24,037 bases of DNA, from positions 1 to 24,037 of IMG/VR virus record IMGVR_UViG_3300042691_001963. One strand, 5' to 3'. A program made the position numbers and the translations under genes. Shown in pieces: positions 3 through 20,397 of this stretch (positions are counted from its first letter, which is position 1; the number at the start of each line of letters is the position of its first letter). The notes under the pieces are model-generated. The model worked only from the letters and a program-made list of their open reading frames with translations, was not told where the DNA came from and did not search any database. The stretch comes from a virus.

Positions 3-926
3 AACACAAGCACTTCCCAATCAGAAATTTATCAAAATGGCGCATGGGTTCAATTTGCTATTTCTTCTGCAAGTTCTGTAAATTATTTGGTTATTGCGGG
101 CGGTGGCGCTGGTGGGGGAGTTTCTAGTGCATTGGGCAACAATGTTGGCGGTGGCGGTGGCGGTGCTGGTGGGTATAGAGAGTCTACTCTTGCTGTTAAT
201 CCGGACGTACCACTCACTGTTACTGTTGGGGCAGGTGGCGCTGGAACATCAACAGACCCATCATATGGTGGGAATGGAAGTGATTCAGTATTTTCTACCA
301 TTACTTCTGTAGGCGGCGGTGGTGGTGGCGCACAAAGCACTTCTACCTCTATTGCAAACGGGCGAGCAGGTGGCTCAGGCGGTGGTGGTGCTGGATATGA
401 CGGTAACTATGTAGGTACTGGTGGCTCTGCAACATCTGGTCAAGGCAGTGCTGGTGGAGGTGGTAACTACACTTCACCTAACTACGCTGGCGGTGGCGGT
501 GGCGGGGCAAATGCTGTAGGTGTTGCTGGAACAAATACTACTGGTGGTAATGGAGGCGCTGGAACTGCTTCTTCTATTACAGGCTCTTCTGTAACTAGAG
601 CTGGCGGTGGCGGTGGTGGAACTTACAATCTTAATGGTAGTGCTGGAACCGCTGGCACTGGAGCAAATGGTGGTGGAAATGGTTCTGCTGGATACGGTGT
701 TGGCTCAAATGCAACTGTTAATACTGGGTCAGGCGGTGGCGGTGCTGGTGGCGGAAATAATAATGCTAGTACTCCTTTTGTTGGTGGTAATGGTGGTTCT
801 GGAATTGTTATTATTTCATACTCAAATTCATTAAAACTTGCAACCGCTACAGGCACATATACCCAAACAAACTCTGGTGGAAATTACATATTCACCTTCA
901 CCGGTTCTGGAACCATCACATTCTAA
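3..926 (+). CDS. Glycine-rich tail fibre/adhesin protein, 5'-truncated by window edge
   Basis: The frame is open from the first bases, so the start lies outside the window; an internal TTG at 87 is not the real start. The visible N-terminal part (NTSTSQSEIYQNGAWVQF) matches the same region of the next gene (NTSLNLLEIWNGSAWVAV), a typical phage-fibre lead-in. It is followed by YLVIAGGGAGGG and about 200 residues of poly-Gly runs broken by short polar inserts, then a C-terminal beta-type tail (GGSGIVIISY, then GNYIFTFTGSGTITF). This is the pattern of the Gly_rich_2-type domain and resembles the polyglycine bundles of T-even gp38-type adhesins, where the inserts contact the receptor. It likely sits at the tip of a tail fibre and decides host range. 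The next gene starts 12 bases after its stop behind an AAGGAG site. Confidence 0.82.
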   Translation, partial: NTSTSQSEIYQNGAWVQFAISSASSVNYLVIAGGGAGGGVSSALGNNVGGGGGGAGGYRESTLAVNPDVPLTVTVGAGGAGTSTDPSYGGNGSDSVFSTITSVGGGGGGAQSTSTSIANGRAGGSGGGGAGYDGNYVGTGGSATSGQGSAGGGGNYTSPNYAGGGGGGANAVGVAGTNTTGGNGGAGTASSITGSSVTRAGGGGGGTYNLNGSAGTAGTGANGGGNGSAGYGVGSNATVNTGSGGGGAGGGNNNASTPFVGGNGGSGIVIISYSNSLKLATATGTYTQTNSGGNYIFTFTGSGTITF

Positions 927-938
927 GGAGAAAAGAAT

Positions 939-1883
939 ATGCCTCAAATTTTTGATGGAACGACAGGCACGGTGCCTGCTTCCTGGACCACGGCCGGGAG
1001 ACCAACGTCGCCCGCTACGGGTCAATTTGGTTATAACACCAGCCTAAACCTGCTTGAAATATGGAATGGATCTGCATGGGTTGCGGTTGGAGATCAGTCT
1101 GCTCCTTATTCAGTTCAATATCTGGTGGTTGCTGGTGGCGGAGGCGGTGGCGGTGGCGAACCAGCCTCTGGTGCCGGTGGCGGCGGTGGAGCAGGCGGCT
1201 ATAGAACAGCATCAGGATATTCAGTAACTCCACAAACTTCATATACAGTAACAGTTGGAGCTGGTGGAGCTGGTGGAGCAGGGGCTGCAAACGGAACACA
1301 AGGAAATAATTCTGTTTTTGACACAATAACTTCCACAGGCGGCGGATTTGGAGCCCCTTATCCAACAGGAGTTAGCGGTGATGGTGGTAATGGCGGTTCA
1401 GGAGGGGGTGGAGGAAACAGTGTCCGCCCTGGCGGATCAGGAACTGCTGGTCAAGGAAATAATGGCGGAACTGGCGGCTCTTATCCTGGACAAAATGGTG
1501 GTGGCGGTGGTGGTGCAGGCGCTGTTGGTGGTGCCGGATCATCTACCGGCACAGGCGGCGCGGGAACAGCTTCTTCAATTACAGGGTCATCAGTAACTTA
1601 TGCAGGTGGCGGTGGAGGTGGCGGCGGCGGATCAAACGGAGGTACTGGCGGTGGAGGTGCTGGAAATTCGGCGGGAAGCAATGGTTCAAATGGATCTGCA
1701 AACACCGGTGGCGGTGCTGGAGGTTCAAAATCCAATGGCTCTAACCAAACTGGAGGTACTGGCGGTTCAGGAGTAGTAGTTATTAGCTATGCTGGTCCTC
1801 AAAGAGCTATTGGCGGAACAGTCACACAATCCGGTGGAAACACTATTCACACATTCACTTCATCTGGCACATTCACAGCCTAA
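939..1883 (+). CDS. Glycine-rich tail fibre/adhesin protein, tandem paralogue
   Basis: A 314-aa protein. ATG 939 is preceded by AAGGAG at 926-931. The N-terminus (TTAGRPTSPATGQFGYNT then LEIWNGSAWVAV) is a short fibre-type attachment region common in phage tail proteins. Next comes YLVVAGGGGGGGGE and a long poly-Gly section with variable inserts, ending in GGSGVVVISY and a beta-rich tail (GGNTIHTFTSSGTFTA). It is a paralogue of the upstream gene: order of segments, boundaries and several inserts agree, and a 15-residue stretch (552-596 versus 1554-1598) is identical in protein but differs at seven synonymous sites. That indicates an old duplication kept by selection on the protein. Role: receptor-binding tip or fibre adhesin, by analogy to Gly-rich phage adhesins; not proven from sequence. 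Confidence 0.85.
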   Translation: MPQIFDGTTGTVPASWTTAGRPTSPATGQFGYNTSLNLLEIWNGSAWVAVGDQSAPYSVQYLVVAGGGGGGGGEPASGAGGGGGAGGYRTASGYSVTPQTSYTVTVGAGGAGGAGAANGTQGNNSVFDTITSTGGGFGAPYPTGVSGDGGNGGSGGGGGNSVRPGGSGTAGQGNNGGTGGSYPGQNGGGGGGAGAVGGAGSSTGTGGAGTASSITGSSVTYAGGGGGGGGGSNGGTGGGGAGNSAGSNGSNGSANTGGGAGGSKSNGSNQTGGTGGSGVVVISYAGPQRAIGGTVTQSGGNTIHTFTSSGTFTA

Positions 1884-3918: not shown

Positions 3919-4572
3919 ATGCCAGCAGCAATGACCTTTACGACACTAAAAGACGACGTCAGGAGTTATCTTGAGCGCGGCGGTTCTGCATCAACAGACC
4001 CGATCGTCTTTGCCCAGATTCCTAACCTGATTACGTTAGCAGAGCGTCGTATCAGTCGTGACCTGAAGATTCAAGGTTTTCAAGCTGTTGTCGTGACGAA
4101 CATGCAAGCCGGTGTTCCTGTGATGCCTAAGCCCGACCGCTGGCGCGAAACCATCAGCATGAACATAGGAACAGGCACCGGTAACAACACTCGTGTCCAG
4201 ATCTTCACAAGAGCCTATGAATATGTCAGAAGCTACTGGCCTGATCAGACTCAGGTAGCGCAGCCTGTATTTTATGCAGACTACAACTACACAAACTGGG
4301 TCTTTGCGCCAACACCTGATATTGCTTACCCTGTTGAGATTGTCTATTACGAGCTACCAGCATTGCTAGACGAAGCTAATCAGACTAACTGGTTGACAGA
4401 ATTTGCACCAAACTTATTGTTATACGCAACACTTTTAGAAGCGACTCCATTCCTAAAGAATGATGAGCGCATCCCTGTATGGACCAACATGTACGCTATG
4501 GCAGCTCAAGCACTTAACGGTGAAGACCTTAAGAAGATCTTGGACCGTGGCGCCGTAAGAAACGAGGCTTAA
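3919..4572 (+). CDS. Head-tail adaptor / tail tubular A-like protein
   Basis: A 217-aa protein starting at ATG 3919 behind AAGGAA. It shows the helical opening TTLKDDVRSYLERGG, IPNLITLAERRISRDLKI, a beta segment (MPKPDRWRETISMNIG), PVFYADYNYTNWVFAPTPD, IVYYELPALLDE and FAPNLLLYATLLEATPFLKND. I know this order from podovirus adaptor proteins that form the ring between portal and nozzle (T7 gp11-like, P22 gp4-like position). The context fits: a nozzle/stabilisation protein is encoded two genes downstream. It could also be called a generic phage adaptor. An internal Met at residue 5 is a possible alternative start. Confidence 0.72.
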   Translation: MPAAMTFTTLKDDVRSYLERGGSASTDPIVFAQIPNLITLAERRISRDLKIQGFQAVVVTNMQAGVPVMPKPDRWRETISMNIGTGTGNNTRVQIFTRAYEYVRSYWPDQTQVAQPVFYADYNYTNWVFAPTPDIAYPVEIVYYELPALLDEANQTNWLTEFAPNLLLYATLLEATPFLKNDERIPVWTNMYAMAAQALNGEDLKKILDRGAVRNEA

Positions 4573-7631: not shown

Positions 7632-7922
7632 ATGACAGAACAAGAATTTCTCAAGCTGCTGCATGAGGTAGCTAAAAAAGCAAAACCGTTTCACAACGAA
7701 CTAAAACCCATCGACACGATGGAAGTTGTATTCACTGAAGTAGGTCTTGACAGCCTTGACCTTCTTATGTGTACAGTATATCTCTGCGAAGTCTACGACG
7801 TAGAAGACGAGAAGAGTAAAGAGATGCAAGCCACGACTCCACGAGAGTGCTGGGACTTTTTAAATGAACATGGTCGTCGTAAACCTGAATCATTTGAGCA
7901 AGCAGTGGGGTGGATCCTATGA
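7632..7922 (+). CDS. Phage-encoded acyl carrier protein
   Basis: A 96-aa acidic helical protein. The segment FTEVGLDSLDLLMCTVYLCE carries the DSL phosphopantetheine site, with Ser41 as the attachment residue, in the position and hydrophobic setting of bacterial ACPs (compare GADSLDTVELVMALEEEF in E. coli AcpP; family knowledge). The first helix (EQEFLKLLHEVAKKAKPF) and an acidic third region (VYDVEDEKSKEMQATTPREC) fit the four-helix fold. The C-terminus is about 15 residues longer than AcpP. To work it must be loaded by a phosphopantetheinyl transferase, not seen here and presumably from the host. Its stop overlaps the start of the ketosynthase gene (ATGA), which suggests coupled synthesis and use as that enzyme's partner. 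Confidence 0.8.
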   Translation: MTEQEFLKLLHEVAKKAKPFHNELKPIDTMEVVFTEVGLDSLDLLMCTVYLCEVYDVEDEKSKEMQATTPRECWDFLNEHGRRKPESFEQAVGWIL

Positions 7923-9040
7923 GAATCTTCTTGACTGAAAGTCGCACAGCTAGTACGACGCAGACTGAGGTCTACGAAGATCATGGTTTTCCGCAGCGCG
8001 TTCATTGGTTCCCTGATAGCTACGCAAGAGTCAAGACAGGTCTTTTTAATCCTGCTCACGTCGTAGCAGAAAAGGTTCTAGATCCAGATCTCTTGAACCT
8101 TCTTCGCCAGACACAGACTGGCAAGACTGCCTTCATCTTGGCTTCTGGAAACAGTAACTTTGCCAACGAAGGTAGGAAGATGGGCAAAGAGAACAGCATG
8201 ACTTTTAACTACAAGGTCTTGCCGTTGTCATTGACCCAGATCTACGCAGGCCGTGTAGCCTCGCAGTGCGGGGAAATAGATCATACAGCAACTGACGCAA
8301 CCGCGTGCACCTCTAGCCTTAAGGTATTGATGGACGTGCAGACACTGATTAAGTTCTATGGGTTTGACCGCGTGGTTGTTCTTGCAGTAGAAGATCAGGT
8401 CAACAATATGACCCTACAGTTCTTTGGTGAAGCAGGAGCAACTCTTACAGAAAAGATGGCAGCTGAGCATCAGGTGATGCCTTCTGCATTTGATTCCAAG
8501 AATTTTGGCTTCTACATTGGTCAGGGTGCTGCTTTTGCAGTCTTTGAGAGTGAGAAGGCCTTAGAAAAGTCTGGTTTGATACCAAAAGCCGAGCTTCTGG
8601 GGGCTTATACAGCCACGGAGCTTCTGACCAATGCCATCGGGCAACGAGAAGATGGCCAGGGATTTACACGGGCCATAAAAGGCGCGATAGAAATTTGTCA
8701 AATTTTGCCAGAACAAATTAAAATCGTGAAGACACATGGCACTGGAACAAAATCTAATAATGCAGCCGAAAAAGCATGTTTAGATCAGTTGCCTGGCAAG
8801 TTTGTAGCGACATCGTATAAGCAACGAATCGGCCATACGATGGGAGCGAGTGGACTTTTAGAGACCCTCTTGCTGTTCAATGATTTGGGGAAGGGCGCTG
8901 TGCCTGAGATCTTGAATAGGACAGAAGAGGATCATGTATACCTCTCGCATCCGGTTGAAGTTCCTGATGGCATAGTGATGAGCTTGAGTGCTGGTATGGG
9001 CAATGTGTTCAGCGCCGCACTGTTCAACACAAGGATATAG
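7919..9040 (+). CDS. Divergent beta-ketoacyl-ACP synthase (FabF/KS-like)
   Basis: A 373-aa protein. I start at ATG 7919, which overlaps the ACP stop as ATGA; a GTG at 7910 would add three residues. The thiolase-fold catalytic set is present: Cys130 in DATACTSSLKVLMD, His273 in KTHGTGTKSNNAAE, and Lys301/His306 in YKQRIGHTMGASGLLE. This matches KAS-I/II type enzymes (Cys-His-His), which condense malonyl-ACP with an acyl chain, and not KAS-III. Divergent points: the usual VTGxGxVSPxG start is missing, the protein is about 40 residues shorter than FabF, and the C-terminal gating motif GFGGTN reads GMGNVF (Met360). No reductase, dehydratase or acyltransferase of the pathway is in the window, so other steps would come from the host. 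It is embedded between virion genes. Confidence 0.85.
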   Translation: MRIFLTESRTASTTQTEVYEDHGFPQRVHWFPDSYARVKTGLFNPAHVVAEKVLDPDLLNLLRQTQTGKTAFILASGNSNFANEGRKMGKENSMTFNYKVLPLSLTQIYAGRVASQCGEIDHTATDATACTSSLKVLMDVQTLIKFYGFDRVVVLAVEDQVNNMTLQFFGEAGATLTEKMAAEHQVMPSAFDSKNFGFYIGQGAAFAVFESEKALEKSGLIPKAELLGAYTATELLTNAIGQREDGQGFTRAIKGAIEICQILPEQIKIVKTHGTGTKSNNAAEKACLDQLPGKFVATSYKQRIGHTMGASGLLETLLLFNDLGKGAVPEILNRTEEDHVYLSHPVEVPDGIVMSLSAGMGNVFSAALFNTRI

Positions 9041-11479: not shown

Positions 11480-12760
11480 ATGGGAATTCTAGACTTTCTA
11501 TTCCAGGGCAGCCCGCCATCGTCTGTTACCACTTATGGTGAGACGACTCAAGACTTGCCTACCTGGTACAGTGACTACACACAAGGTCTGATCAGCCGTG
11601 CAAACGCGATCGCAGCAGAGCCGTATCAAGCCTACACGAATCCTAGGATTGCCGGGCTAGACCCGGCGCAGCAAACGGCGTATCAGAAAACATTGGGGCT
11701 TGAGCAGCAATACGCCCCAACAATGCAATCTGCTCTACAAGCCGCCCAGCAAGGGGCTGGAGGAAGTTCTTTAAATCAAGCAAACCCTTACTTCCAGCAG
11801 GCTCTTGGTTACAACCCAATGACCGCTGCCAACCCATTGCTTGGTGAAGCAGCCTCGAATATTCGCATGCAAGCAGGCGATACTAGCGCCTTGGCTCAAC
11901 CTTATTTGAATCAAGCGGCTCAGATGACTGGGCAAGCAGGTCAAACTGGTTTGGCTGGCATTCAAGACTACATGAACCCATACAATGCACAAGTCGTTGA
12001 CCGCATTGGTGAACTGGGGGCTCGTAACTTGCGTGAGCAGTTTTTGCCTCAGATCCAAGACAAGGCGATTCAGTCAGGTCAATTTGGTGGTAGCCGTCAA
12101 GGCGAGGCTATTGGCCGTGCTTTGCGTGACACTCAAGAGTCTACACTGGCTCAGCAGGCTCAAGCATTGCAATCTGGCTATGGTCAAGCTGCTCAGCAAC
12201 TTGCTGCAGATCGTACTCGTCAACTACAAGCTGCTGGTCAAACAGCAGCCCTTGGTCAAACTCAGGCTGGTCTTGAGAGTGCTGATCTTGCAAGGTATGC
12301 CCAGACTGGATCCCAATTGGGGGCTCTTGGTCAAATGACAGGCCAATTAGCCGGTCAAGCAGGAACACAAGCATTGCAAGTCGGTCAGCAGACAGGAGCT
12401 CTTGCAGGTCAAGATCTTACTCGTCAACTACAGGGTGCCCAGCAACTTGGAGCCCTTGGTCAGCAGCAAGCTCAGCTTGGACTTCAAAACATTGGTGCCT
12501 TGGAAGGTGCTGGAGCGTCTCAACAGCAGCAAGCTCAGCGTTCATTGGATCAGGCATACGCCGACTTCCTTGGACAAAGAGAATACGACCGCAACAACAT
12601 TGCATTCCTCAACGCAGCTATTCGAGGCCTTGAGATTCCTACGTCGACATCAACCACCTCTACAGGTCCTGCCAGCGTATATCAACCTTCGCCGTTGTCT
12701 CAACTGGCTCAGGGTGCTGCAAGTATCTACGGCTTCAACAAGCTGTTTGGTGGAAAATAA
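11480..12760 (+). CDS. Gln/Ala-rich internal virion protein (gp14-like position)
   Basis: A 426-aa protein, ATG 11480 one base after the previous stop, with AAGAGG upstream. The N-terminal segment includes AAEPYQAYTNPRIAGLDPAQ, a pattern common in podovirus internal proteins. The middle is a long Gln/Ala/Gly/Leu-rich helical region with many LGQ, AGQ and QQA units (residues about 140-350) and no catalytic motif. It closes with a Ser/Thr stretch (PTSTSTTSTG) and SQLAQGAASIYGFNKLFGGK. Composition and place suggest a helical protein of the ejection apparatus, comparable in position to T7 gp14, though direct homology cannot be shown here. Confidence 0.65.
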   Translation: MGILDFLFQGSPPSSVTTYGETTQDLPTWYSDYTQGLISRANAIAAEPYQAYTNPRIAGLDPAQQTAYQKTLGLEQQYAPTMQSALQAAQQGAGGSSLNQANPYFQQALGYNPMTAANPLLGEAASNIRMQAGDTSALAQPYLNQAAQMTGQAGQTGLAGIQDYMNPYNAQVVDRIGELGARNLREQFLPQIQDKAIQSGQFGGSRQGEAIGRALRDTQESTLAQQAQALQSGYGQAAQQLAADRTRQLQAAGQTAALGQTQAGLESADLARYAQTGSQLGALGQMTGQLAGQAGTQALQVGQQTGALAGQDLTRQLQGAQQLGALGQQQAQLGLQNIGALEGAGASQQQQAQRSLDQAYADFLGQREYDRNNIAFLNAAIRGLEIPTSTSTTSTGPASVYQPSPLSQLAQGAASIYGFNKLFGGK

Positions 12761-12775
12761 TTAAGAGGATTCAAT

Positions 12776-15700
12776 ATGCCGTTAGATGATGAAGATCTGC
12801 AAGAACAGCTAGGCGCGACAAATCAGACCGGATTTACTTCGTCAAGAGGTCAGAATCCATATACAACCCAGCTTCAAGAGTTGCTGGGTAAGTATCTTGA
12901 GCAAACTGACAAACAAGCCACTGAAAAGCAAGTTATTCTTGATAAGGCTCGTGAGCGCCTTCTTGCGCGTCAATCTGGACCTTCTGATGCAGAGACGGCT
13001 TTTCGTATTGCCGGAGCCTTTGGTAAGCCGACCAGGACTGGTAGCTTCTTTGAAACGCTAGGCGGTGTGTCAGATGTGACAGCCGATGTTCTTAGCCAGA
13101 AGCGTAAGTCTAAAGCAGAACTTGAAGATCTGCAGATGAAGTACGACCTTGCAGCCATCGATCAGAAGGGTGAGGGCCTTAAGACTAAGGTCTCTGCCCT
13201 TTCTACATTGGCCAAGACTGTACCTAAAGATCGCTTGACCGAGATCGAGAAGCTGACTGAAGTCATTCAAGATCCTAAGGCAACGCCTGATGCCAAGCGT
13301 ATTGCAGAAGCCCGTATCAAGAAACTAACATTCATCAAGCCTGAAACAGCCGGTGCAGATGGTGTTGGTGGTAAGCCACAATCGCCAGCCGGTAAGATTG
13401 CGGCAGACGAGGGCTTTAAGCCAGGAACCCCTGAATTCAATAAACGTGTTCAGACCATCGTCAAGGAAGGCACGACAGTTAAGCTATCTCCTGCTGAGAT
13501 CAAGCTCAAAGATGAGCTGCAAGACAAGATCTCTGCCGGTAAAGAAGTGGTCACCGCGTTTGGACAGGCATTGAAACTAAATGACGTAGCTTATGAAGGT
13601 AAGACTGCAGGCATTCGTGAGTCTGTCGGTTCTGTCATTCCTGGTGTTCGTCAATCTACTGCTCAAACTGCAACGGCAGACCTTGAAAACATTGTACTTG
13701 GTACTGCGCTGACCCAATTAAAAGCAATTTTTGGAGCAGCTCCTACCGAAGGCGAACGTAAGATCTTGATCGATGTTCAAGGCTCTATCAATAAGCCTGC
13801 AGCAACCCGTAAAGCTATTTGGGAAAGAGCCCAGACAGCCGCGGCTCGCAGAATTAAAGACAATCAAACAAGATTGACCGAGATCAGTACAGGAGCCTAT
13901 TCACGCAAATCCGTATCAGGTGATGATGCAGAGCCAGAAGGAAATGCTGATGGCGGACGTGTAGGTTTTTCTAGAGGTGGTGACGTATCCGCAGCCAACA
14001 TTGGCCGTGCAGTAGGTCAAGGCCTCGGCTTTGGCTTTGGTGACGAGGCAATCGCCCGTGTCAGAGCCAAGATGGAAAATCGCCCATACGAAGATGTACT
14101 GCGTGAAGAGCGCGAAGCCTATGATCGTTTTGTAGAAAAGAACCCCTTAATTGCTCTAGGCACTGAAGTTGTATCAGGAGCCATTCCTAGTGTTGCGGCT
14201 GCATTTATTCCTGGTGGCCAAGCAGCTACTGCAGTGGGAGCAACAAGGACTGCTCAGGCTGCCCAACGCCTGTCATCTGTCTTGCCGCAGTTTATGAAAG
14301 GGCCAACGGCTCGTATGGCAGGAACAGCAGGTGTTCAAGGATCTATCTCAGGTGCTGGTACAGCAACAGAAGGTGAACGTGGTGCTGGAGCAGTTCAAGG
14401 TGGCGTAACAAGCGCCGTTGCAGGACCAGTCATTGCAAAAGGTGCACAACTTGTAGGAGCAGGTGGCAAGGCTATTAAGAGCAAGATTGCACCTTCACCT
14501 CAAACCGTTGAGGCAAGAGCCAATGAGAAGGTACTAGAGGCAATGGCTAGGGACGAGATCGATCCTATACAAGCACGAGCCATGATGGAAAAAGACAGGG
14601 CAATGGGCGTTACTTCAACACTCATGGACGTCACTCCATCTACTAAATCGCTTGGAGAAGCTGTGGTCACGATCCCCGGACCAGGACGTAAGATTCTTGG
14701 TCAGGCTCTGGAAGATCGTCTTGAAGGTGGTCGTGATGTTGTTGGTCAGCGCGTTGTTAAAGACTTGGCCAAGGGCCGTGACTACGTTGCAAGCGAAGAT
14801 AGCCTACTTGGCAAGCTTCGTGCAAATGCAAATAACCTCTATGATGCAGCCTACGCCCATGGATCTGTTAACGATCCACGCCTCATGAAGGTATTGGAAG
14901 ACGATACATTTAAGAGTGCCTTTAAAGAAGCTCAAAGAATTGCTGCAAAAGAAGCACGGGCAGCAGAGCTACGTGGTGAAGATCCAAGCAAGTTTATCCT
15001 CAAAGACATTTACAACGTCGACAGCGAGGGCAACATCGCCAGCATTAGTAAGGTGCCTGACGTCAGGACCTTGGACTACATCAAGCGCGGTATTGACGCA
15101 TTGATTGACAAGGGCTACAAAGGCGAAGGTATGGGTAAGGCAGAAGCCAATGCTCTTAAAGATCTTCGTAAGGCGTACATCGGAGCCATTGACGAAAATG
15201 TGCCTGAATATGCAGCCGCTCGTGCCAAATATGCCGGCGACATGGAAGTGCTAGATGCTCTTCGCCTTGGTCGTGAGGAGTTTATGTCTCCTAAGACCTT
15301 GCCTGAGCAAGCTAGAAAGATCGTTGCCAATATGTCAGAAGGCGAACGTGACGCTTTAAGAACTGGCGCAACACAAGCCATCCTGACTAAAATTATGGAC
15401 AGCCCGCAGCAAATTAACGCGGCCCAGCGTGTCATAGGAGCACCTGCAACACGTAAACGTCTTGAAGCCCTATTCGATAATCCTCAGGAATATGAGATCT
15501 TTGAAGCAGCTTTAAAGCGTGAATCCGAATTGTTCAGAAACGCCCAAGACATCGCCCGCGGCAGCCGTACCCAGCCTAAAGCAGAAGCTGTTAAGGATCT
15601 GAAGTCTGGCAGCGGAGTACTTGATGTTGCCGGCGAGGCGGTTGACGTAGCTATGGGAACACCTGGCTCCGTGGTCGGTCGCGTCTTGAAATACTTACAA

Positions 15701-15970
15701 GCCAGAACGACACTTGATGAGAAGAGCTCTGCAGAGATTGCCAAGATGCTTAAGTCATCGACACCTCAAGAGATTGACGACACCTTGTCACGTCTAGAGA
15801 GGAGCAGCGAGAAGTTTGTTCAAGACAGAGAGCGCACTTCAAAACGTCTGCAAGGAATTGCAGGAACTACCGGCCGCGTGCTTCCTGAATCTGAGAAGCT
15901 TCCTGTTGAAAAAGAGGAAGCCCCTGATGAGGATGTAGAAGCTACTATCGAACGCCTCACCAGGGAGTAA
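12776..15970 (+). CDS. Large ejection-type virion protein (1064 aa) with GGRVG linker
   Basis: ATG 12776 follows an AAGAGGAT site. Residues 1-130 are charged and helical (FRIAGAFGKPTRTGSFFETL is a phrase I know from podovirus internal proteins). A coiled-coil-like section extends to about 380. At residues 393-397 lies GGRVG, followed by a Gly-rich joint and YEDVLREEREAYDRFVEKNP. Residues about 455-570 are hydrophobic and Gly/Ala-rich (ALGTEVVSGAIPSVAAAFIP, VQGGVTSAVAGPVIAKGAQL), possibly inserting into the host membrane. The C-terminal 450 residues are helical and charged (QARAMMEKDRAMGVTSTLMD, YDAAYAHGSV, VPEYAAARAKYAGDMEVLDA). No transglycosylase triad was recognised. It is likely a counterpart of the long ejection proteins of podoviruses (gp15/gp16-like position). 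Confidence 0.68.
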   Translation: MPLDDEDLQEQLGATNQTGFTSSRGQNPYTTQLQELLGKYLEQTDKQATEKQVILDKARERLLARQSGPSDAETAFRIAGAFGKPTRTGSFFETLGGVSDVTADVLSQKRKSKAELEDLQMKYDLAAIDQKGEGLKTKVSALSTLAKTVPKDRLTEIEKLTEVIQDPKATPDAKRIAEARIKKLTFIKPETAGADGVGGKPQSPAGKIAADEGFKPGTPEFNKRVQTIVKEGTTVKLSPAEIKLKDELQDKISAGKEVVTAFGQALKLNDVAYEGKTAGIRESVGSVIPGVRQSTAQTATADLENIVLGTALTQLKAIFGAAPTEGERKILIDVQGSINKPAATRKAIWERAQTAAARRIKDNQTRLTEISTGAYSRKSVSGDDAEPEGNADGGRVGFSRGGDVSAANIGRAVGQGLGFGFGDEAIARVRAKMENRPYEDVLREEREAYDRFVEKNPLIALGTEVVSGAIPSVAAAFIPGGQAATAVGATRTAQAAQRLSSVLPQFMKGPTARMAGTAGVQGSISGAGTATEGERGAGAVQGGVTSAVAGPVIAKGAQLVGAGGKAIKSKIAPSPQTVEARANEKVLEAMARDEIDPIQARAMMEKDRAMGVTSTLMDVTPSTKSLGEAVVTIPGPGRKILGQALEDRLEGGRDVVGQRVVKDLAKGRDYVASEDSLLGKLRANANNLYDAAYAHGSVNDPRLMKVLEDDTFKSAFKEAQRIAAKEARAAELRGEDPSKFILKDIYNVDSEGNIASISKVPDVRTLDYIKRGIDALIDKGYKGEGMGKAEANALKDLRKAYIGAIDENVPEYAAARAKYAGDMEVLDALRLGREEFMSPKTLPEQARKIVANMSEGERDALRTGATQAILTKIMDSPQQINAAQRVIGAPATRKRLEALFDNPQEYEIFEAALKRESELFRNAQDIARGSRTQPKAEAVKDLKSGSGVLDVAGEAVDVAMGTPGSVVGRVLKYLQARTTLDEKSSAEIAKMLKSSTPQEIDDTLSRLERSSEKFVQDRERTSKRLQGIAGTTGRVLPESEKLPVEKEEAPDEDVEATIERLTRE
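13952..13966 (+). repeat. GGRVG motif, copy in the 1064-aa protein
   Basis: Encodes Gly-Gly-Arg-Val-Gly at residues 393-397, followed by FSRGGDV, in a Gly-rich joint between a helical N-terminal part and the hydrophobic central part. The same motif recurs in the next gene with different synonymous codons. Confidence 0.75.
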
Positions 15971-15975
15971 GAGGA

Positions 15976-18900
15976 ATGAGTGATCTAGACAAACTCAAAG
16001 ACAAGTACGACAAAAAAGAAGATAAGGCATCTTCAAACGTCAAGAACGCTAAAGCCCTGACCAAAGAACTTGAGTCCAAGAAAGACTCGGCTCCTGTAAG
16101 GGCAGCAAAGCAAGCCGTGTCTGGTTTCAGAAGCCAGTGGTCTGGTATGGACGACCAGGGCAAAGTAGGAATTGGTAAGGGTGTTCCTGGTATCTATTAC
16201 GACACCGTGGCCATTCCTGCATTGGCTGGAGTTGTTGATGACAAGTATGCTCCTGAGTTTGCTGTAGAGGCCGATAAGAAGGCCGGAAAGATCAAAGAAG
16301 CTATCCGTAAGGACATGGGTATCGAAGCACCTAAGGGTGCCTTAGAACACTTTGCAAATGCAGGTGGAACCATGCTCGCCCAGTTGCCGGTTCCCGGAGC
16401 CTGGCTAAACCGAGTCTTGAGCCCAGTTAAAAGTGCCGGAATTGCCGGCAAGGTAGCCACGTCTCCTATCGAATATCTAAGCCCGATCGTAGATCCTAAG
16501 AAGATCAACTATGGTGTTGGTACTGGCTTTGGCGGTACCATCGGCACCGTTGGCGAGATGCTTGAAGAAGAGCCTGTCAAGAAAGAACTTGGCGGTTTGA
16601 TTCAGAAGTACGAAGACGGTGGCCGTGTCGGCAAAGTCAAGTCGTTCTTCTCTGCCGTTGACAAGGCCATTGATACCTTAAAGCAGAAAAAAGGAACTGG
16701 AGAGCAGATCCTCAAGGAGATCGAGAAGGCTCCTGGTGTCAAGAAAGAAGAGCTTGAACTTCGTAAGATCGGTGAGAAGCTTAAAAACAAGAAGTCAATT
16801 ACCCAAGAAGAAGTCAGGGCTCTTGCTGCTGAGTCGCCCGCTCCTAGTATCAAGGCCATAGTTAAAGACAAAAAGCCTATTCCTGTTGCCGAAGATTGGA
16901 CCCCTGATCTTAGCGAAACAAATGCGTCTTATCTAGAGATTATGGGGATCTCCCCCGTTGTCAATCCAGAAGACAGGACAGTACTTGGATTCTTGATTGA
17001 AGAAACCGGCGACATTGTTGACATCAATACCCTAAAGTCGATGACGCCAGAAGATTTTGGTGTTCAAAAAACAATTAACGACTACAACATGGTTGACGAT
17101 ATGAAGGGCGTCGCCAGCATGGTAAACACCCAGTTCAATAATGCAACTAGGGCTGCTATGCAAAACAAAGAGCCTAAGTTTGAAAAATACACGACTCCAG
17201 GTGGTGAAAACTATCGTGAGATATTGCTGCAAGTTGACAGGCCATCTTCTTCAAGAAAGGCACTTGGAGGAGATCCTGTAGAGCTTACCCCAGCAGAGGC
17301 AGCAGAAAGAATTGGAATCATGCCTGATGATTTTGCAGAGGATTCTAAGGTTCTCTACTACCCATCTGGCTATTACATTGAAAAGCTTAAAAGCGGTCGC
17401 TATATTACAACTGTTGAAAATAGAGACAAGCTCAGCAGCAATCTTAATGAAGTTGAAGACTTCTTAGCTAGTGCCATGTCTTCTGAAGTAGGCATGAGTA
17501 GCCCTTCATTTGTTAGCGGACACTTTGATGAACCAAACGTTGTTGTCCATGCCCGTGTAACAGATCGCAAAGGACCTAACGGCGAGAAGGTCTTGTATGT
17601 TGAAGAGATTCAATCAGACTGGCATCAAGCTGCCCGCAAGAAAAGAGATGAACTCATTGACGACAAGCTCAGTGAGTCTCGCGAGATGGTTGAAAAACAA
17701 AGCCGCGAGATCATGGAGAGCATCGGCAGGTCTGAGCCAACTAGAGAAAATGCGGCTATTCGTGAAGGTATCGTAAATAAACTAGCTAAGCAACGTCGTG
17801 CTGAAATTGCTAAAGAGATTCCAAAAGATGAGGGATATTCAAAACCAATGTCTGATCTTCAAGGAACGTCTGCGGATGATATTCTTTGGCAATATGGCGA
17901 CCGTCTAAATGAAAATCAAAAATCTTGGTTGCGTGACTTTATTGAGAAATGGGAACTAGACGTTGATGGTTCACCTGCTGGTCAAGCGGCCCAAGATCAA
18001 TTAGCTAGAGAATACGACGCATGGATTAGTACCAATTCACTTAAGGGTGTTCCAGATGCCCCTTGGAAAAATACTGCCAATGAGCTTGCTGTGAAGCAAA
18101 TTTTAGATGTCGCCGCAAAAGAGGGCTACGACACTGTGGCCTTTAGCCCAGGATCAGAACACGCTAAGCGCTATGGTATGAGCCAGTTCTTTGATACTTT
18201 AACAGCTACCAAAGAACCTAATGGCCAAATTAAGTTAGTGGGCACAAAAGAAGGCAAGGGCGTGGTCGATAGACGCGTTGACGCAGACGAGCTTGCAGAC
18301 TACATCGGCAAAGAAAAAGCTGAAAACATTATGGCCCAACTTAAGAAGCCGCCTCCTAGGAACGAGGCCGGAGACAGACTAAGTGGCCTAATAGACGAGT
18401 GGTCTCAAAAATATGATGATGACTTTCCTATCACCTTAAAAGAAAAGCTGACACCAGAAGAGGTGAATCAGTGGGATACTTTGCTTGAAGAAAGCCGAGT
18501 ATGGGATCGTGAAAACAGGGTTCAAGAGGGTAATAGGATGGTCATGCCTAAGCAGCAGGCTGTTTTAGTAGGTGAAGAACTAGAACTGACAACCGCTGAA
18601 GGCGCCGGCAAGAAAAAGATCTACGACGAGATCATTCCTAACTTTGTTCGCAAGTACGCGCAAAAAGAGTTTGGTGCTGAGCCTGGTGAGATTGATATTT
18701 CTATCGGCGGCTCTACAAAGCCGTATGAGCAATATCTAGAAGAGATCAACATCGACCCCTATCGTTATTTTGATGAAGACCAAGTGTTTGATGAACTACA
18801 TGAGCGCGTCATGGATAAGGCAAATGTCAGAGGATATGACTTCAAGGGCGAAGATGCCGATGATCTTTGGGATCAGATGATGACCCGCGAGGGTCCGTTT

Positions 18901-20397
18901 GAGGAAATCTGGCAACAGGCAGAGCAAGAGATGTATCAGGCTAAAGCCAAAGAACTTGCTGAAAAAGATCCAGGTCAAAAGCTCAAAGCGTTTGCTGTTC
19001 CCGTCACTCCTCAAATGCGCGAGAAGATTACAGGTGAAGGTCAAAAGCTATTTGCAGCAGCCCCAATAGTAGGTGTTCAAGGCATTCCTGGCATGGAAGA
19101 AGCTCAACAAGCCTTTGATTCAGAGGGGTCTGATTACGACTACGAAACCGCAAGGTCTTCTGGCATGGCTCCTGAAGAATCAGGAGAAAACAAAGGTCAT
19201 TGGGGATCTGTAGCACAAGCCAGTGAAGAAGCAAGAAGGCAATACGGTTTGCCTGAAGACAGCTACATGCTTCTCAAGGGAAGAAAGCACGAGACATGGA
19301 ACATGGCTGAAGAAGCCGAAAAAGAGCGAGGCGCGGAGATCATCAAGCGCGGAGATCGCTACTTCTCAGTGCCGAGGGGTTCTGTCAGTGAGGAAGCCTC
19401 CGCTGAGTTTGAAACTGGTGGGCGCGTAGGTGCTGCAAAGAAAGCTATTGAAGCGGCTATGAAAAAAGCCGGCCAGAAGAAGGGTCAGGTAGCAGATAAA
19501 GACTTGACAACTTTGCAAGACTTTCATACAAGTCTTGGAGACAGGATAAATGAAAGAGTGCGCGAAAAGATGAAGCTAATGGAAAGCTTCGACTATTCCT
19601 ATAAACCTGGTGACAGGGTATTCACTGAGTGGTCTGCTAGCAATAACTACGCGCCATTTGAAATATTGAGAAAGACCATCACAGACGAAGGTTTTGTTCG
19701 TGATCCAAAAACTTCAAAAATTCTTCGCGATGCCGAGGGAAATAAGGTTAAACGCGAACCAGAACCGGGATACTTAATCCGCCACCAGCTTAACTTTAAT
19801 GGGGAGGACATTGACCATCAGTATGTGATTCCTGCAAAGAACATCAAGGGTCTTGTAGAACCTGATGAACCTTACAAACGAGGTGGTTCCGTAGGCTTTG
19901 AAAATGGTGGGCGAGTAGGGAAGACTAGGGAAGCTGCAGAAAAGCTCCTACGGGTCCTCCATGGAAGTCCTACGAATGTCGTACCGTCAAAAGAACGGAC
20001 CATTGACGTGACTACAGATCCTGCCTACGCGGTAAAGCGCGGAACAGACAAGATGTTTGGTAAGTCAGGTCCTCCGATGGTTAACAAATTTGACATACCA
20101 GAAGGCCGGCTGCTTAGGTTTGAGGAGCAGTACAGCCCTCAAGACGTAGCCCTGATGAAGCGATTCTTCAATAAGCTGCCTGGAGACACCCCCATGACCG
20201 GGGAGGAGATCTACGATCTGGCCCAAGGACGAGACGTGGTTCTGGGTGGTATCGCCAAGGCTGGCGGCTTTGCGGGGTATGAGCGCCCCAATACCGGGGC
20301 CGTGGGCAAGGGTCAATGGTTCCGGGTAACCGAGCCAGAAGAACTCAAGCGGGGTAAGGCTCGCGGGGGTCTTGCCCAAGCTACAAAACCCCTATAG
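15976..20397 (+). CDS. Giant polyvalent virion protein with EIQSDWHQ module and ART-like C-terminus
   Basis: A 1473-aa protein, ATG 15976 behind AGGGAG. Modules separated by GGRVG motifs (residues 215, 1148, 1303, 1311): a basic/helical N-terminus with weakly hydrophobic segments (about 60-200); GTGEQILKEIEKAPGVKKEE (about 240); TTPGGENYREILL and FDEPNVVVHARVTDR; EIQSDWHQ (544-551); PDAPWKNTANELAVKQIL (from 693); KKIYDEIIPNFVRKYAQKEF; VTPQMREKITGEGQKLF (about 1010). In that order these are the phage large polyvalent protein module. Next comes DYDYETARSSGM...GHWGS...LLKGRKHETW...GDRYFSVP (1053-1137), another phage-wide module, then a barrel-like segment (PGDRVFTEWS, PGYLIRHQLN). The last 150 residues (HGSP at 1329, TTDPAYAVKRG, VTEPEEL) look like an ADP-ribosyltransferase fold. 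It is probably packaged and ejected into the host. Confidence 0.75.
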   Translation: MSDLDKLKDKYDKKEDKASSNVKNAKALTKELESKKDSAPVRAAKQAVSGFRSQWSGMDDQGKVGIGKGVPGIYYDTVAIPALAGVVDDKYAPEFAVEADKKAGKIKEAIRKDMGIEAPKGALEHFANAGGTMLAQLPVPGAWLNRVLSPVKSAGIAGKVATSPIEYLSPIVDPKKINYGVGTGFGGTIGTVGEMLEEEPVKKELGGLIQKYEDGGRVGKVKSFFSAVDKAIDTLKQKKGTGEQILKEIEKAPGVKKEELELRKIGEKLKNKKSITQEEVRALAAESPAPSIKAIVKDKKPIPVAEDWTPDLSETNASYLEIMGISPVVNPEDRTVLGFLIEETGDIVDINTLKSMTPEDFGVQKTINDYNMVDDMKGVASMVNTQFNNATRAAMQNKEPKFEKYTTPGGENYREILLQVDRPSSSRKALGGDPVELTPAEAAERIGIMPDDFAEDSKVLYYPSGYYIEKLKSGRYITTVENRDKLSSNLNEVEDFLASAMSSEVGMSSPSFVSGHFDEPNVVVHARVTDRKGPNGEKVLYVEEIQSDWHQAARKKRDELIDDKLSESREMVEKQSREIMESIGRSEPTRENAAIREGIVNKLAKQRRAEIAKEIPKDEGYSKPMSDLQGTSADDILWQYGDRLNENQKSWLRDFIEKWELDVDGSPAGQAAQDQLAREYDAWISTNSLKGVPDAPWKNTANELAVKQILDVAAKEGYDTVAFSPGSEHAKRYGMSQFFDTLTATKEPNGQIKLVGTKEGKGVVDRRVDADELADYIGKEKAENIMAQLKKPPPRNEAGDRLSGLIDEWSQKYDDDFPITLKEKLTPEEVNQWDTLLEESRVWDRENRVQEGNRMVMPKQQAVLVGEELELTTAEGAGKKKIYDEIIPNFVRKYAQKEFGAEPGEIDISIGGSTKPYEQYLEEINIDPYRYFDEDQVFDELHERVMDKANVRGYDFKGEDADDLWDQMMTREGPFEEIWQQAEQEMYQAKAKELAEKDPGQKLKAFAVPVTPQMREKITGEGQKLFAAAPIVGVQGIPGMEEAQQAFDSEGSDYDYETARSSGMAPEESGENKGHWGSVAQASEEARRQYGLPEDSYMLLKGRKHETWNMAEEAEKERGAEIIKRGDRYFSVPRGSVSEEASAEFETGGRVGAAKKAIEAAMKKAGQKKGQVADKDLTTLQDFHTSLGDRINERVREKMKLMESFDYSYKPGDRVFTEWSASNNYAPFEILRKTITDEGFVRDPKTSKILRDAEGNKVKREPEPGYLIRHQLNFNGEDIDHQYVIPAKNIKGLVEPDEPYKRGGSVGFENGGRVGKTREAAEKLLRVLHGSPTNVVPSKERTIDVTTDPAYAVKRGTDKMFGKSGPPMVNKFDIPEGRLLRFEEQYSPQDVALMKRFFNKLPGDTPMTGEEIYDLAQGRDVVLGGIAKAGGFAGYERPNTGAVGKGQWFRVTEPEELKRGKARGGLAQATKPL
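16618..16632 (+). repeat. GGRVG motif, copy 1 in the polyvalent protein
   Basis: Residues 215-219, in YEDGGRVGKVKSFF. It follows the N-terminal segment and precedes the KKGTGEQILKEI start of the EIQSD-type module, so it falls at a module boundary. Confidence 0.72.
19417..19431 (+). repeat. GGRVG motif, copy 2 in the polyvalent protein
   Basis: Residues 1148-1152, in ETGGRVGAAKKAIEAAMKKA. It lies just after the GDRYFSVPRGS end of one module and before the barrel-like segment. Confidence 0.72.
19882..19920 (+). repeat. Double GGSVG/GGRVG motif before the ART-like domain
   Basis: Residues 1303-1315 read GGSVGFENGGRVG: two copies eight codons apart, placed directly before the helix and LHGSP that open the C-terminal ART-like domain. 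The codons differ between copies (GGTGGT versus GGTGGG; GTAGGC versus GTAGGG). Confidence 0.72.

What the first reader, a model, noticed from the sequence alone, without database searches (positions are those of the whole stretch)
19933..20397. Probable ADP-ribosyltransferase-like domain at the end of an ejected giant protein
Residues about 1320-1473 show LHGSP, TTDPAYAVKRG and a later VTEPEEL, matching the order of ART-fold proteins (His/Arg in strand 1, a middle segment, a late Glu). If the protein is ejected with DNA, the domain could modify a host target on entry, as T4 Alt does.
Basis: partly seen in the sequence, partly recalled or inferred. Interest (0 to 1): 0.6.

Follow-up and report, generated by a model that had tools for sequence, protein, structure and literature searches.

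The report
Phage giant protein with ART-fold tail
The last 150 residues of a giant phage protein that is probably carried inside the virus particle fold like ADP-ribosylating enzymes, so the phage may deliver this domain into its host with its DNA; this is a divergent form of a known phage strategy, and its active site is unusual enough that activity must be tested.

Summary
Residues 1322-1462 of the 1473-aa ORF (15976..20397) are invisible to Pfam, NCBIfam and PDB sequence searches. Relatives from 16 other viral contigs give a model (pLDDT 85). All 50 PDB entries listed in the second look (VIA-align), as far as I can classify them, are ADP-ribosyltransferase (ART) superfamily: AcrIF11 Z 9.3, cyanophage A4 pre-ejectosome C-terminus Z 7.9, ParT, diphtheria toxin, tankyrases. 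Viral models include named ART-PolyVal proteins (E 8e-5).

His1329 is invariant and sits in the ART His slot. The proposed late Glu (VTEPEEL) is neither in the catalytic slot nor invariant. That slot is Gln1447 here and Asp, Glu or Asn in relatives. It swaps acid for amide with position 1436 in all 14 sequences: E1436 with Q/N1447, Q1436 with D/E1447.

The protein is polyvalent: the middle region has a GNAT-like fold; an ortholog carries a Pfam-level ART-PolyVal insert; another phage fuses the domain to PBECR5. It follows a DNA-ejection-protein gene here and lies between terminase and portal genes in the other lineage. Packaging and catalysis are inferred. It is a divergent variant of a known kind and not Alt-like by residues.

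The parts
15976..20397 (+). 1473-aa giant ORF (polyvalent-type protein) carrying the finding at its C terminus
   Evidence: begins just after the stop of the 1064-aa ORF, AGAGGA upstream of ATG
17158..19110 (+). Middle region (residues 395-1045): GNAT-like acyltransferase fold with long helical insertions (motif VLYVEEIQSDWHQ)
   Evidence: Model m236d63235f1b, pLDDT 73; listed PDB matches are nearly all GNAT/HAT entries, Z up to 10.0; viral models named ART-PolyVal-like / large polyvalent protein
19126..19881 (+). Hypervariable linker (residues about 1051-1302), not shared with most orthologs
   Evidence: Column identity 0.02-0.04 and 74-88% gaps over residues 1051-1275
19882..19920 (+). GGSVGFENGGRVG linker immediately before the ART-like domain
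   Evidence: Motif scan; the same GG-K/R-VG linkers flank domain cassettes in the ortholog L018
19939..20361 (+). ART-fold domain, residues 1322-1462
   Evidence: Model macf16665a4ff, pLDDT 84.9, pTM 0.77; PDB and viral structure matches; alignment A3
19960..19962 (+). His1329, strand-1 His slot of the ART fold, invariant
   Evidence: start-of-range registration with A4 p27 H1426
20005..20007 (+). Asp1344, at the slot where other ARTs have the strand-2 Tyr/aromatic; D in 11 and H in 3 of 14
   Evidence: assignment rests on motif alignment, not on a superposition
20026..20028 (+). Tyr1351, invariant, at the start of the helix after strand 2
20281..20283 (+). Glu1436 (GYERP), E in 8 and Q in 6 of 14; reciprocal with Gln1447
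   Evidence: tree
20314..20316 (+). Gln1447, canonical acid slot of the ART fold; Q/N in 8, D/E in 6 of 14
20326..20346 (+).
11480..12760 (+). 426-aa ORF matching a DNA ejection protein family (phrog_4287, 3.2e-11)
12776..15970 (+). 1064-aa ORF directly upstream (phrog_5880, phrog_24990, unknown function), with its own GGRVG linker
3919..4572 (+). SU10-type adaptor protein, indicating a short-tailed virion
   Evidence: PF24175, 4.4e-25

Best explanation
The C-terminal 150 residues form a divergent ART-fold effector domain at the end of a polyvalent-type protein of a short-tailed phage. The protein is most likely packed in the head with the ejection proteins and delivered with the DNA; once inside, the domain binds NAD+ through His1329 and its neighbours and modifies a host target, or removes host NAD, in the first minutes of infection. 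The active site is not textbook: the usual acid slot holds Gln1447 and the carboxylate may instead come from Glu1436 on the preceding strand. Shown here: ART fold (predicted), invariant His, purifying selection, polyvalent architecture, ejection/head gene context. Inferred: packaging, ejection, NAD use, target.
For: Fold: model pLDDT 85; second look at PDB gives AcrIF11 (6kyf) Z 9.3 over 110 residues, rmsd 3.0; cyanophage A4 pre-ejectosome chain 9k3a_B residues 1419-1601 Z 7.9 over 130; then ParT, diphtheria toxin, RES, VPA0770, tankyrases, NatT, so all listed entries are ART-superfamily as far as I can classify them. Viral Foldseek: 15 hits at E <= 1e-3, including 'ART-PolyVal-like domain-containing protein' (Salmonella phage Mutine, 8.1e-5) and 'PolyVal ADP-Ribosyltransferase' (1.0e-4). 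Residues: invariant His1329; A4 p27 H1426 and D1586 fall on domain residues 8 and 126 by range arithmetic. Architecture: middle region GNAT-like, and Iyer et al. 2017 (PMC5512222) report that one GNAT family in polyvalent proteins typically neighbours an ART; ortholog L018 has a PF18760 ART-PolyVal insert over the Pfam cut-off (33.3 vs 31.2 bits); L022 fuses the domain to PBECR5 (7.6e-21). Context: the gene follows a DNA ejection protein gene and a second giant-protein gene; in the second lineage the order is terminase small, terminase large, carrier, giant protein with PF18760, portal. Solved precedent for packaging: 9k3a_B is the 1717-aa A4 p27.
Against: No sequence profile reaches the ART families: Pfam none, PF18760 none in this record, hhalign to ART-PolyVal sets not above shuffled controls. 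Foldseek against PDB had no hit at E <= 1e-3. The strand-2 aromatic appears to be D or H, and the acid slot is Gln in this window, so the domain may be catalytically dead. Relative L028 has an internal deletion that removes much of the domain, so at least one lineage seems to do without it. Virion presence was not tested.
Confidence: 0.66

Rival explanations
1. A degenerate ART fold kept as a binding module: it is packaged and ejected but no longer does chemistry, and holds NAD, ADP-ribose, nucleic acid or a host protein.
For: Gln at the acid slot, D/H at the strand-2 aromatic slot; internal deletion of the domain in L028.
Against: Strong purifying selection and many invariant polar residues (H1329, Y1351, K1354, R1355, N1370, D1373, E1384, R1437) in 14 sequences; at 1436/1447 one carboxylate and one amide are always present, which is what retained chemistry would give.
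Confidence: 0.25
2. The giant protein is not virion-borne; it is made in the infected cell and the ART-like domain acts late or intracellularly.
For: No proteomics here; the 1473-aa ORF is followed by non-structural genes (DUF932, methyltransferase, PRA-PH/MazG-like).
Against: Directly downstream of ejection-protein and giant-protein genes; between terminase and portal in the other lineage; A4 p27 with a matching C-terminal fold is in a solved pre-ejectosome.
Confidence: 0.15
3. The fold match is incidental and the domain is an unrelated alpha+beta fold.
For: Z values of 5-9 can reflect common arrangements, as the tool itself warns; sequence profiles do not connect.
Against: The listed structure matches are all ART-superfamily entries rather than a mix, two independent libraries agree, and the invariant His falls in the ART His slot.
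Confidence: 0.06

Closest known systems
ART-PolyVal (PF18760), ADP-ribosyltransferases of polyvalent proteins (Iyer et al. 2017, PMC5512222)
   Same: Fold, strand-1 HG[ST] motif, position in giant phage proteins with other effector domains, neighbourhood with head genes; true PF18760 domains occur in an ortholog and in the adjacent gene of related phages
   Different: Not detected by the PF18760 model; D/H instead of the strand-2 aromatic; Q/N/D/E at the strand-5 acid slot with reciprocal E/Q at 1436
Cyanophage A4 (Anabaena phage A-4L) p27, chain 9k3a_B, pre-ejectosome (probably Hou et al. 2025, doi 10.1073/pnas.2423403122; paper not readable here)
   Same: ART-like C-terminal domain (LYHGT, GTYFSKSS, GDTTLVINPD) on a giant ejection-type protein, seen in a solved virion structure
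   Different: 1717 aa, no sequence homology to the window proteins; canonical-looking H, Y and D residues
AcrIF11 anti-CRISPR ART (6kyf)
   Same: Best structural match (Z 9.3); phage-borne ART with non-canonical key residues H-F-H-D (PMC12421852)
   Different: Stand-alone intracellular protein; no sequence similarity found; no evidence for a Cas target here
T4 Alt
   Same: Injected virion ART as a concept
   Different: R-S-E clade active site (PMC5512222); the window domain has His in strand 1

Membership tests
ART superfamily (fold) | Split beta-sheet ART core | tested here: met
   Predicted model only; listed PDB and viral structure matches are ARTs
ART superfamily, H-Y-[EDQ] clade | His in strand 1 | tested here: met
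   His1329 invariant and in register with A4 p27 H1426
ART superfamily, H-Y-[EDQ] clade | Tyr/aromatic in strand 2 | tested here: inconclusive
   Motif alignment puts D/H1344-V1345 there; Y1351 lies in the next helix; no superposition available
ART superfamily, H-Y-[EDQ] clade | E/D/Q in strand 5 | tested here: inconclusive
   Gln1447 in the window, D/E/N in relatives; Q is allowed by the clade's name (PMC9503650), N is not; slot assignment by range arithmetic
PF18760 ART-PolyVal | Score over the Pfam gathering cut-off | tested here: not met
   No match in this protein or record
Polyvalent proteins | Several unrelated effector domains in one polypeptide | tested here: met
   GNAT-like plus ART-like by predicted fold; PF18760 insert in ortholog L018; PBECR5 fusion in L022
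Polyvalent proteins | Encoded with virion/ejection genes | tested here: met
Polyvalent proteins | Packaged in the virion and injected | not testable with these tools
   Needs virion proteomics
T4 Alt/VIP2 (R-S-E) | Arg in strand 1 at the catalytic position | tested here: not met
   His1329 occupies the slot
AcrIF11 | Inhibits type I-F CRISPR by ADP-ribosylating Cas8f/Csy1 | not testable with these tools
   Structural similarity only

The most novel reading that the evidence does not exclude
A virion-delivered ART family in which the catalytic carboxylate has moved: acid and amide have exchanged places between position 1447 (canonical strand-5 slot) and position 1436 (preceding strand), leaving an active enzyme with a non-canonical site.
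Probability: 0.22. Interest if true: 0.7.

Novelty: new variant of a known kind. Interest (0 to 1): 0.45.

Why it matters
Injected ARTs are thought to be widespread in phages, but few are known experimentally beyond T4 Alt. This family shows that such domains can be so divergent that sequence libraries miss them, and the match to a solved pre-ejectosome suggests that ART-like tails sit on ejection proteins of unrelated podophages. The acid/amide exchange gives a clear, cheap test of whether an ART active site can relocate its carboxylate.

Tried and rejected
Pfam, NCBIfam and PDB sequence searches with the domain or its profile: nothing meaningful. Profile-profile comparison with ART-PolyVal sets: correct motif pairing in two sets but scores not separable from shuffled profiles (one shuffle reached 27.8 against 22.4), so it is not used as evidence of homology. 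Cellular relatives: none in genome contigs by two routes. Annotated phages: no relative of the domain. A last pattern scan had a spacing error of one codon (my mistake) and returned only frame-broken chance hits. A second specific pattern scan returned 15 contigs, all already known, so the detectable family is small. Significance of the acid/amide swap: only one or two events on the tree, and a single origin is not rejected (p-AU 0.129), so it is suggestive only. Sequence homology between the window's large proteins and A4 ejectosome proteins: none.

Full report
What was checked. The window is a 24,037-base virus record. The finding lies at the end of a 1473-aa ORF, 15976..20397 on the + strand. 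The quoted motifs are present at the stated place. His1329 is in LHGSP (1328-1332), Tyr1351 in TTDPAYAVKRG, and VTEPEEL spans 1451-1457.

Sequence libraries say nothing. The domain has no Pfam, NCBIfam or PHROG match and no meaningful PDB sequence match. Relatives were found only in viral contigs: 16 other contigs, none in about 85,000 prokaryote genomes by two routes, none among annotated phages.

Conservation. In 14 aligned sequences H1329, V1345, T1346, Y1351, K1354, R1355, D1358, N1370, D1373, E1384, Y1386, G1434, Y1435, R1437 and W1448 are invariant. Pairwise dN/dS is 0.05-0.30 (synonymous changes are near saturation in several pairs, so the values are rough). The domain is as conserved as the first 300 residues of the giant protein, with a hypervariable linker between. 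In other contigs (L022-L026) it follows a different N-terminal part altogether, so it is a module.

Fold. The predicted model of residues 1322-1473 has pLDDT 84.9 and pTM 0.77. Foldseek against PDB was weak (no hit at 1e-3) but led with 9k3a_B and ParT. The VIA-align second look gave AcrIF11 Z 9.3, cyanophage A4 pre-ejectosome Z 7.9, ParT 6.8, diphtheria toxin 6.3, RES 6.2, tankyrases 5.6, NatT 5.4; every entry listed is an ART-superfamily protein as far as I can classify it from its title. Against predicted viral proteins, 15 hits reached 1e-3, several named ART-PolyVal or PolyVal ADP-ribosyltransferase. 6kyf is identified as AcrIF11 by PMC12421852.

Active site. The aligned ranges start at model residue 1 and chain residue 14 (diphtheria toxin), 1024 (tankyrase 2), 1177 (tankyrase 1) and 1419 (A4 p27). 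With the catalytic His known at 21, 1031 and 1184 (own knowledge) and the LYHGT His at 1426 in p27, all four fall on model residue 8, which is His1329. From the range ends, the acid of p27 (D1586) falls on residue 126, and those of diphtheria toxin and tankyrases on 125-127 (residue numbers from own knowledge). Residue 126 is Gln1447. This is range arithmetic, not a superposition.

An unexpected pattern. Column 126 is Q, N, D or E, and column 115 (Glu1436, GYERP) is E or Q. In all 14 sequences E1436 goes with Q/N1447 and Q1436 with D/E1447. The two columns lie on strands that follow each other (113-115 and 127-130). I noticed this after seeing the data; the tree allows one or two events only, and a single origin is not rejected. 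It is a lead, not a result. A single carboxylate always remaining in the pair would fit retained catalysis.

The rest of the protein. Residues 395-1045 were modelled (pLDDT 73); PDB matches are GNAT-type acetyltransferases almost throughout, best Z 10.0, and viral matches include ART-PolyVal-like and large polyvalent proteins. Iyer et al. 2017 describe GNAT and ART as neighbours in polyvalent proteins. An ortholog (L018) has a true PF18760 domain inserted between two near-identical copies of ALGGLIQKYENGGKVGK. In L022 the domain and PBECR5 (PF18814) are in one polypeptide. In the second lineage the next gene carries PF18760.

Delivery. The ORF follows a 1064-aa ORF and a DNA-ejection-protein family member, in a record with an SU10-type adaptor, so a short-tailed virion. 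In the second lineage the carrier lies between the large terminase and portal genes, a context that PMC9503650 takes as a sign of packaging. The A4 p27 protein, with an ART-like C-terminus, is part of a solved pre-ejectosome. Packaging of the window's protein is therefore likely but not shown.

Conclusion. A divergent ART-fold domain on a polyvalent-type, probably virion-delivered phage protein. It works like an injected ART if active; it is not a member of PF18760 by score and not Alt-like by residues. I put about 0.93 on the ART fold, 0.75 on packaging and 0.55 on catalytic activity.

Noticed in passing
window 7632-7922 and 7910-9040 (+): An acyl-carrier-protein-like ORF (LDSLDL, no Pfam match) overlaps a beta-ketoacyl synthase ORF (PF02801 1.6e-14, PF00109 3e-8) with Cys, His, His motifs intact (ATACTSS, THGTGT, GHTMGASG), inside the structural gene block. 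A phage-borne ACP/ketosynthase pair is odd.
   Followed up: partly
L018:4557-5066 and flanks: A PF18760 ART-PolyVal cassette inserted in the ortholog of the window's giant protein, flanked by direct repeats of ALGGLIQKYENGGKVGK (51 bp, nearly identical), as if domains are added by duplication of GG-K/R-VG linkers.
   Followed up: partly
window 16618-16632, 19417-19431, 19882-19920 (1473-aa ORF residues 215, 1148, 1303-1315) and 1064-aa ORF residue 393: GG[RK]VG linkers recur between domains of several large proteins of this phage and its relatives.
   Followed up: no
L028:8001-8147: Relative in which most of the ART-like domain is deleted in frame while the giant protein continues.
   Followed up: no
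L023:6786-8507, L024:4934-6730, L026:6762-8513, about residues 1-370 of the carriers: The parts N-terminal to the ART-like domain differ completely between close relatives while the linker and domain are kept, which looks like cassette exchange.
   Followed up: no
window 3-926 and 939-1883 (+): Two consecutive glycine-rich, tail-fibre-like ORFs with similar C-terminal parts.
   Followed up: no
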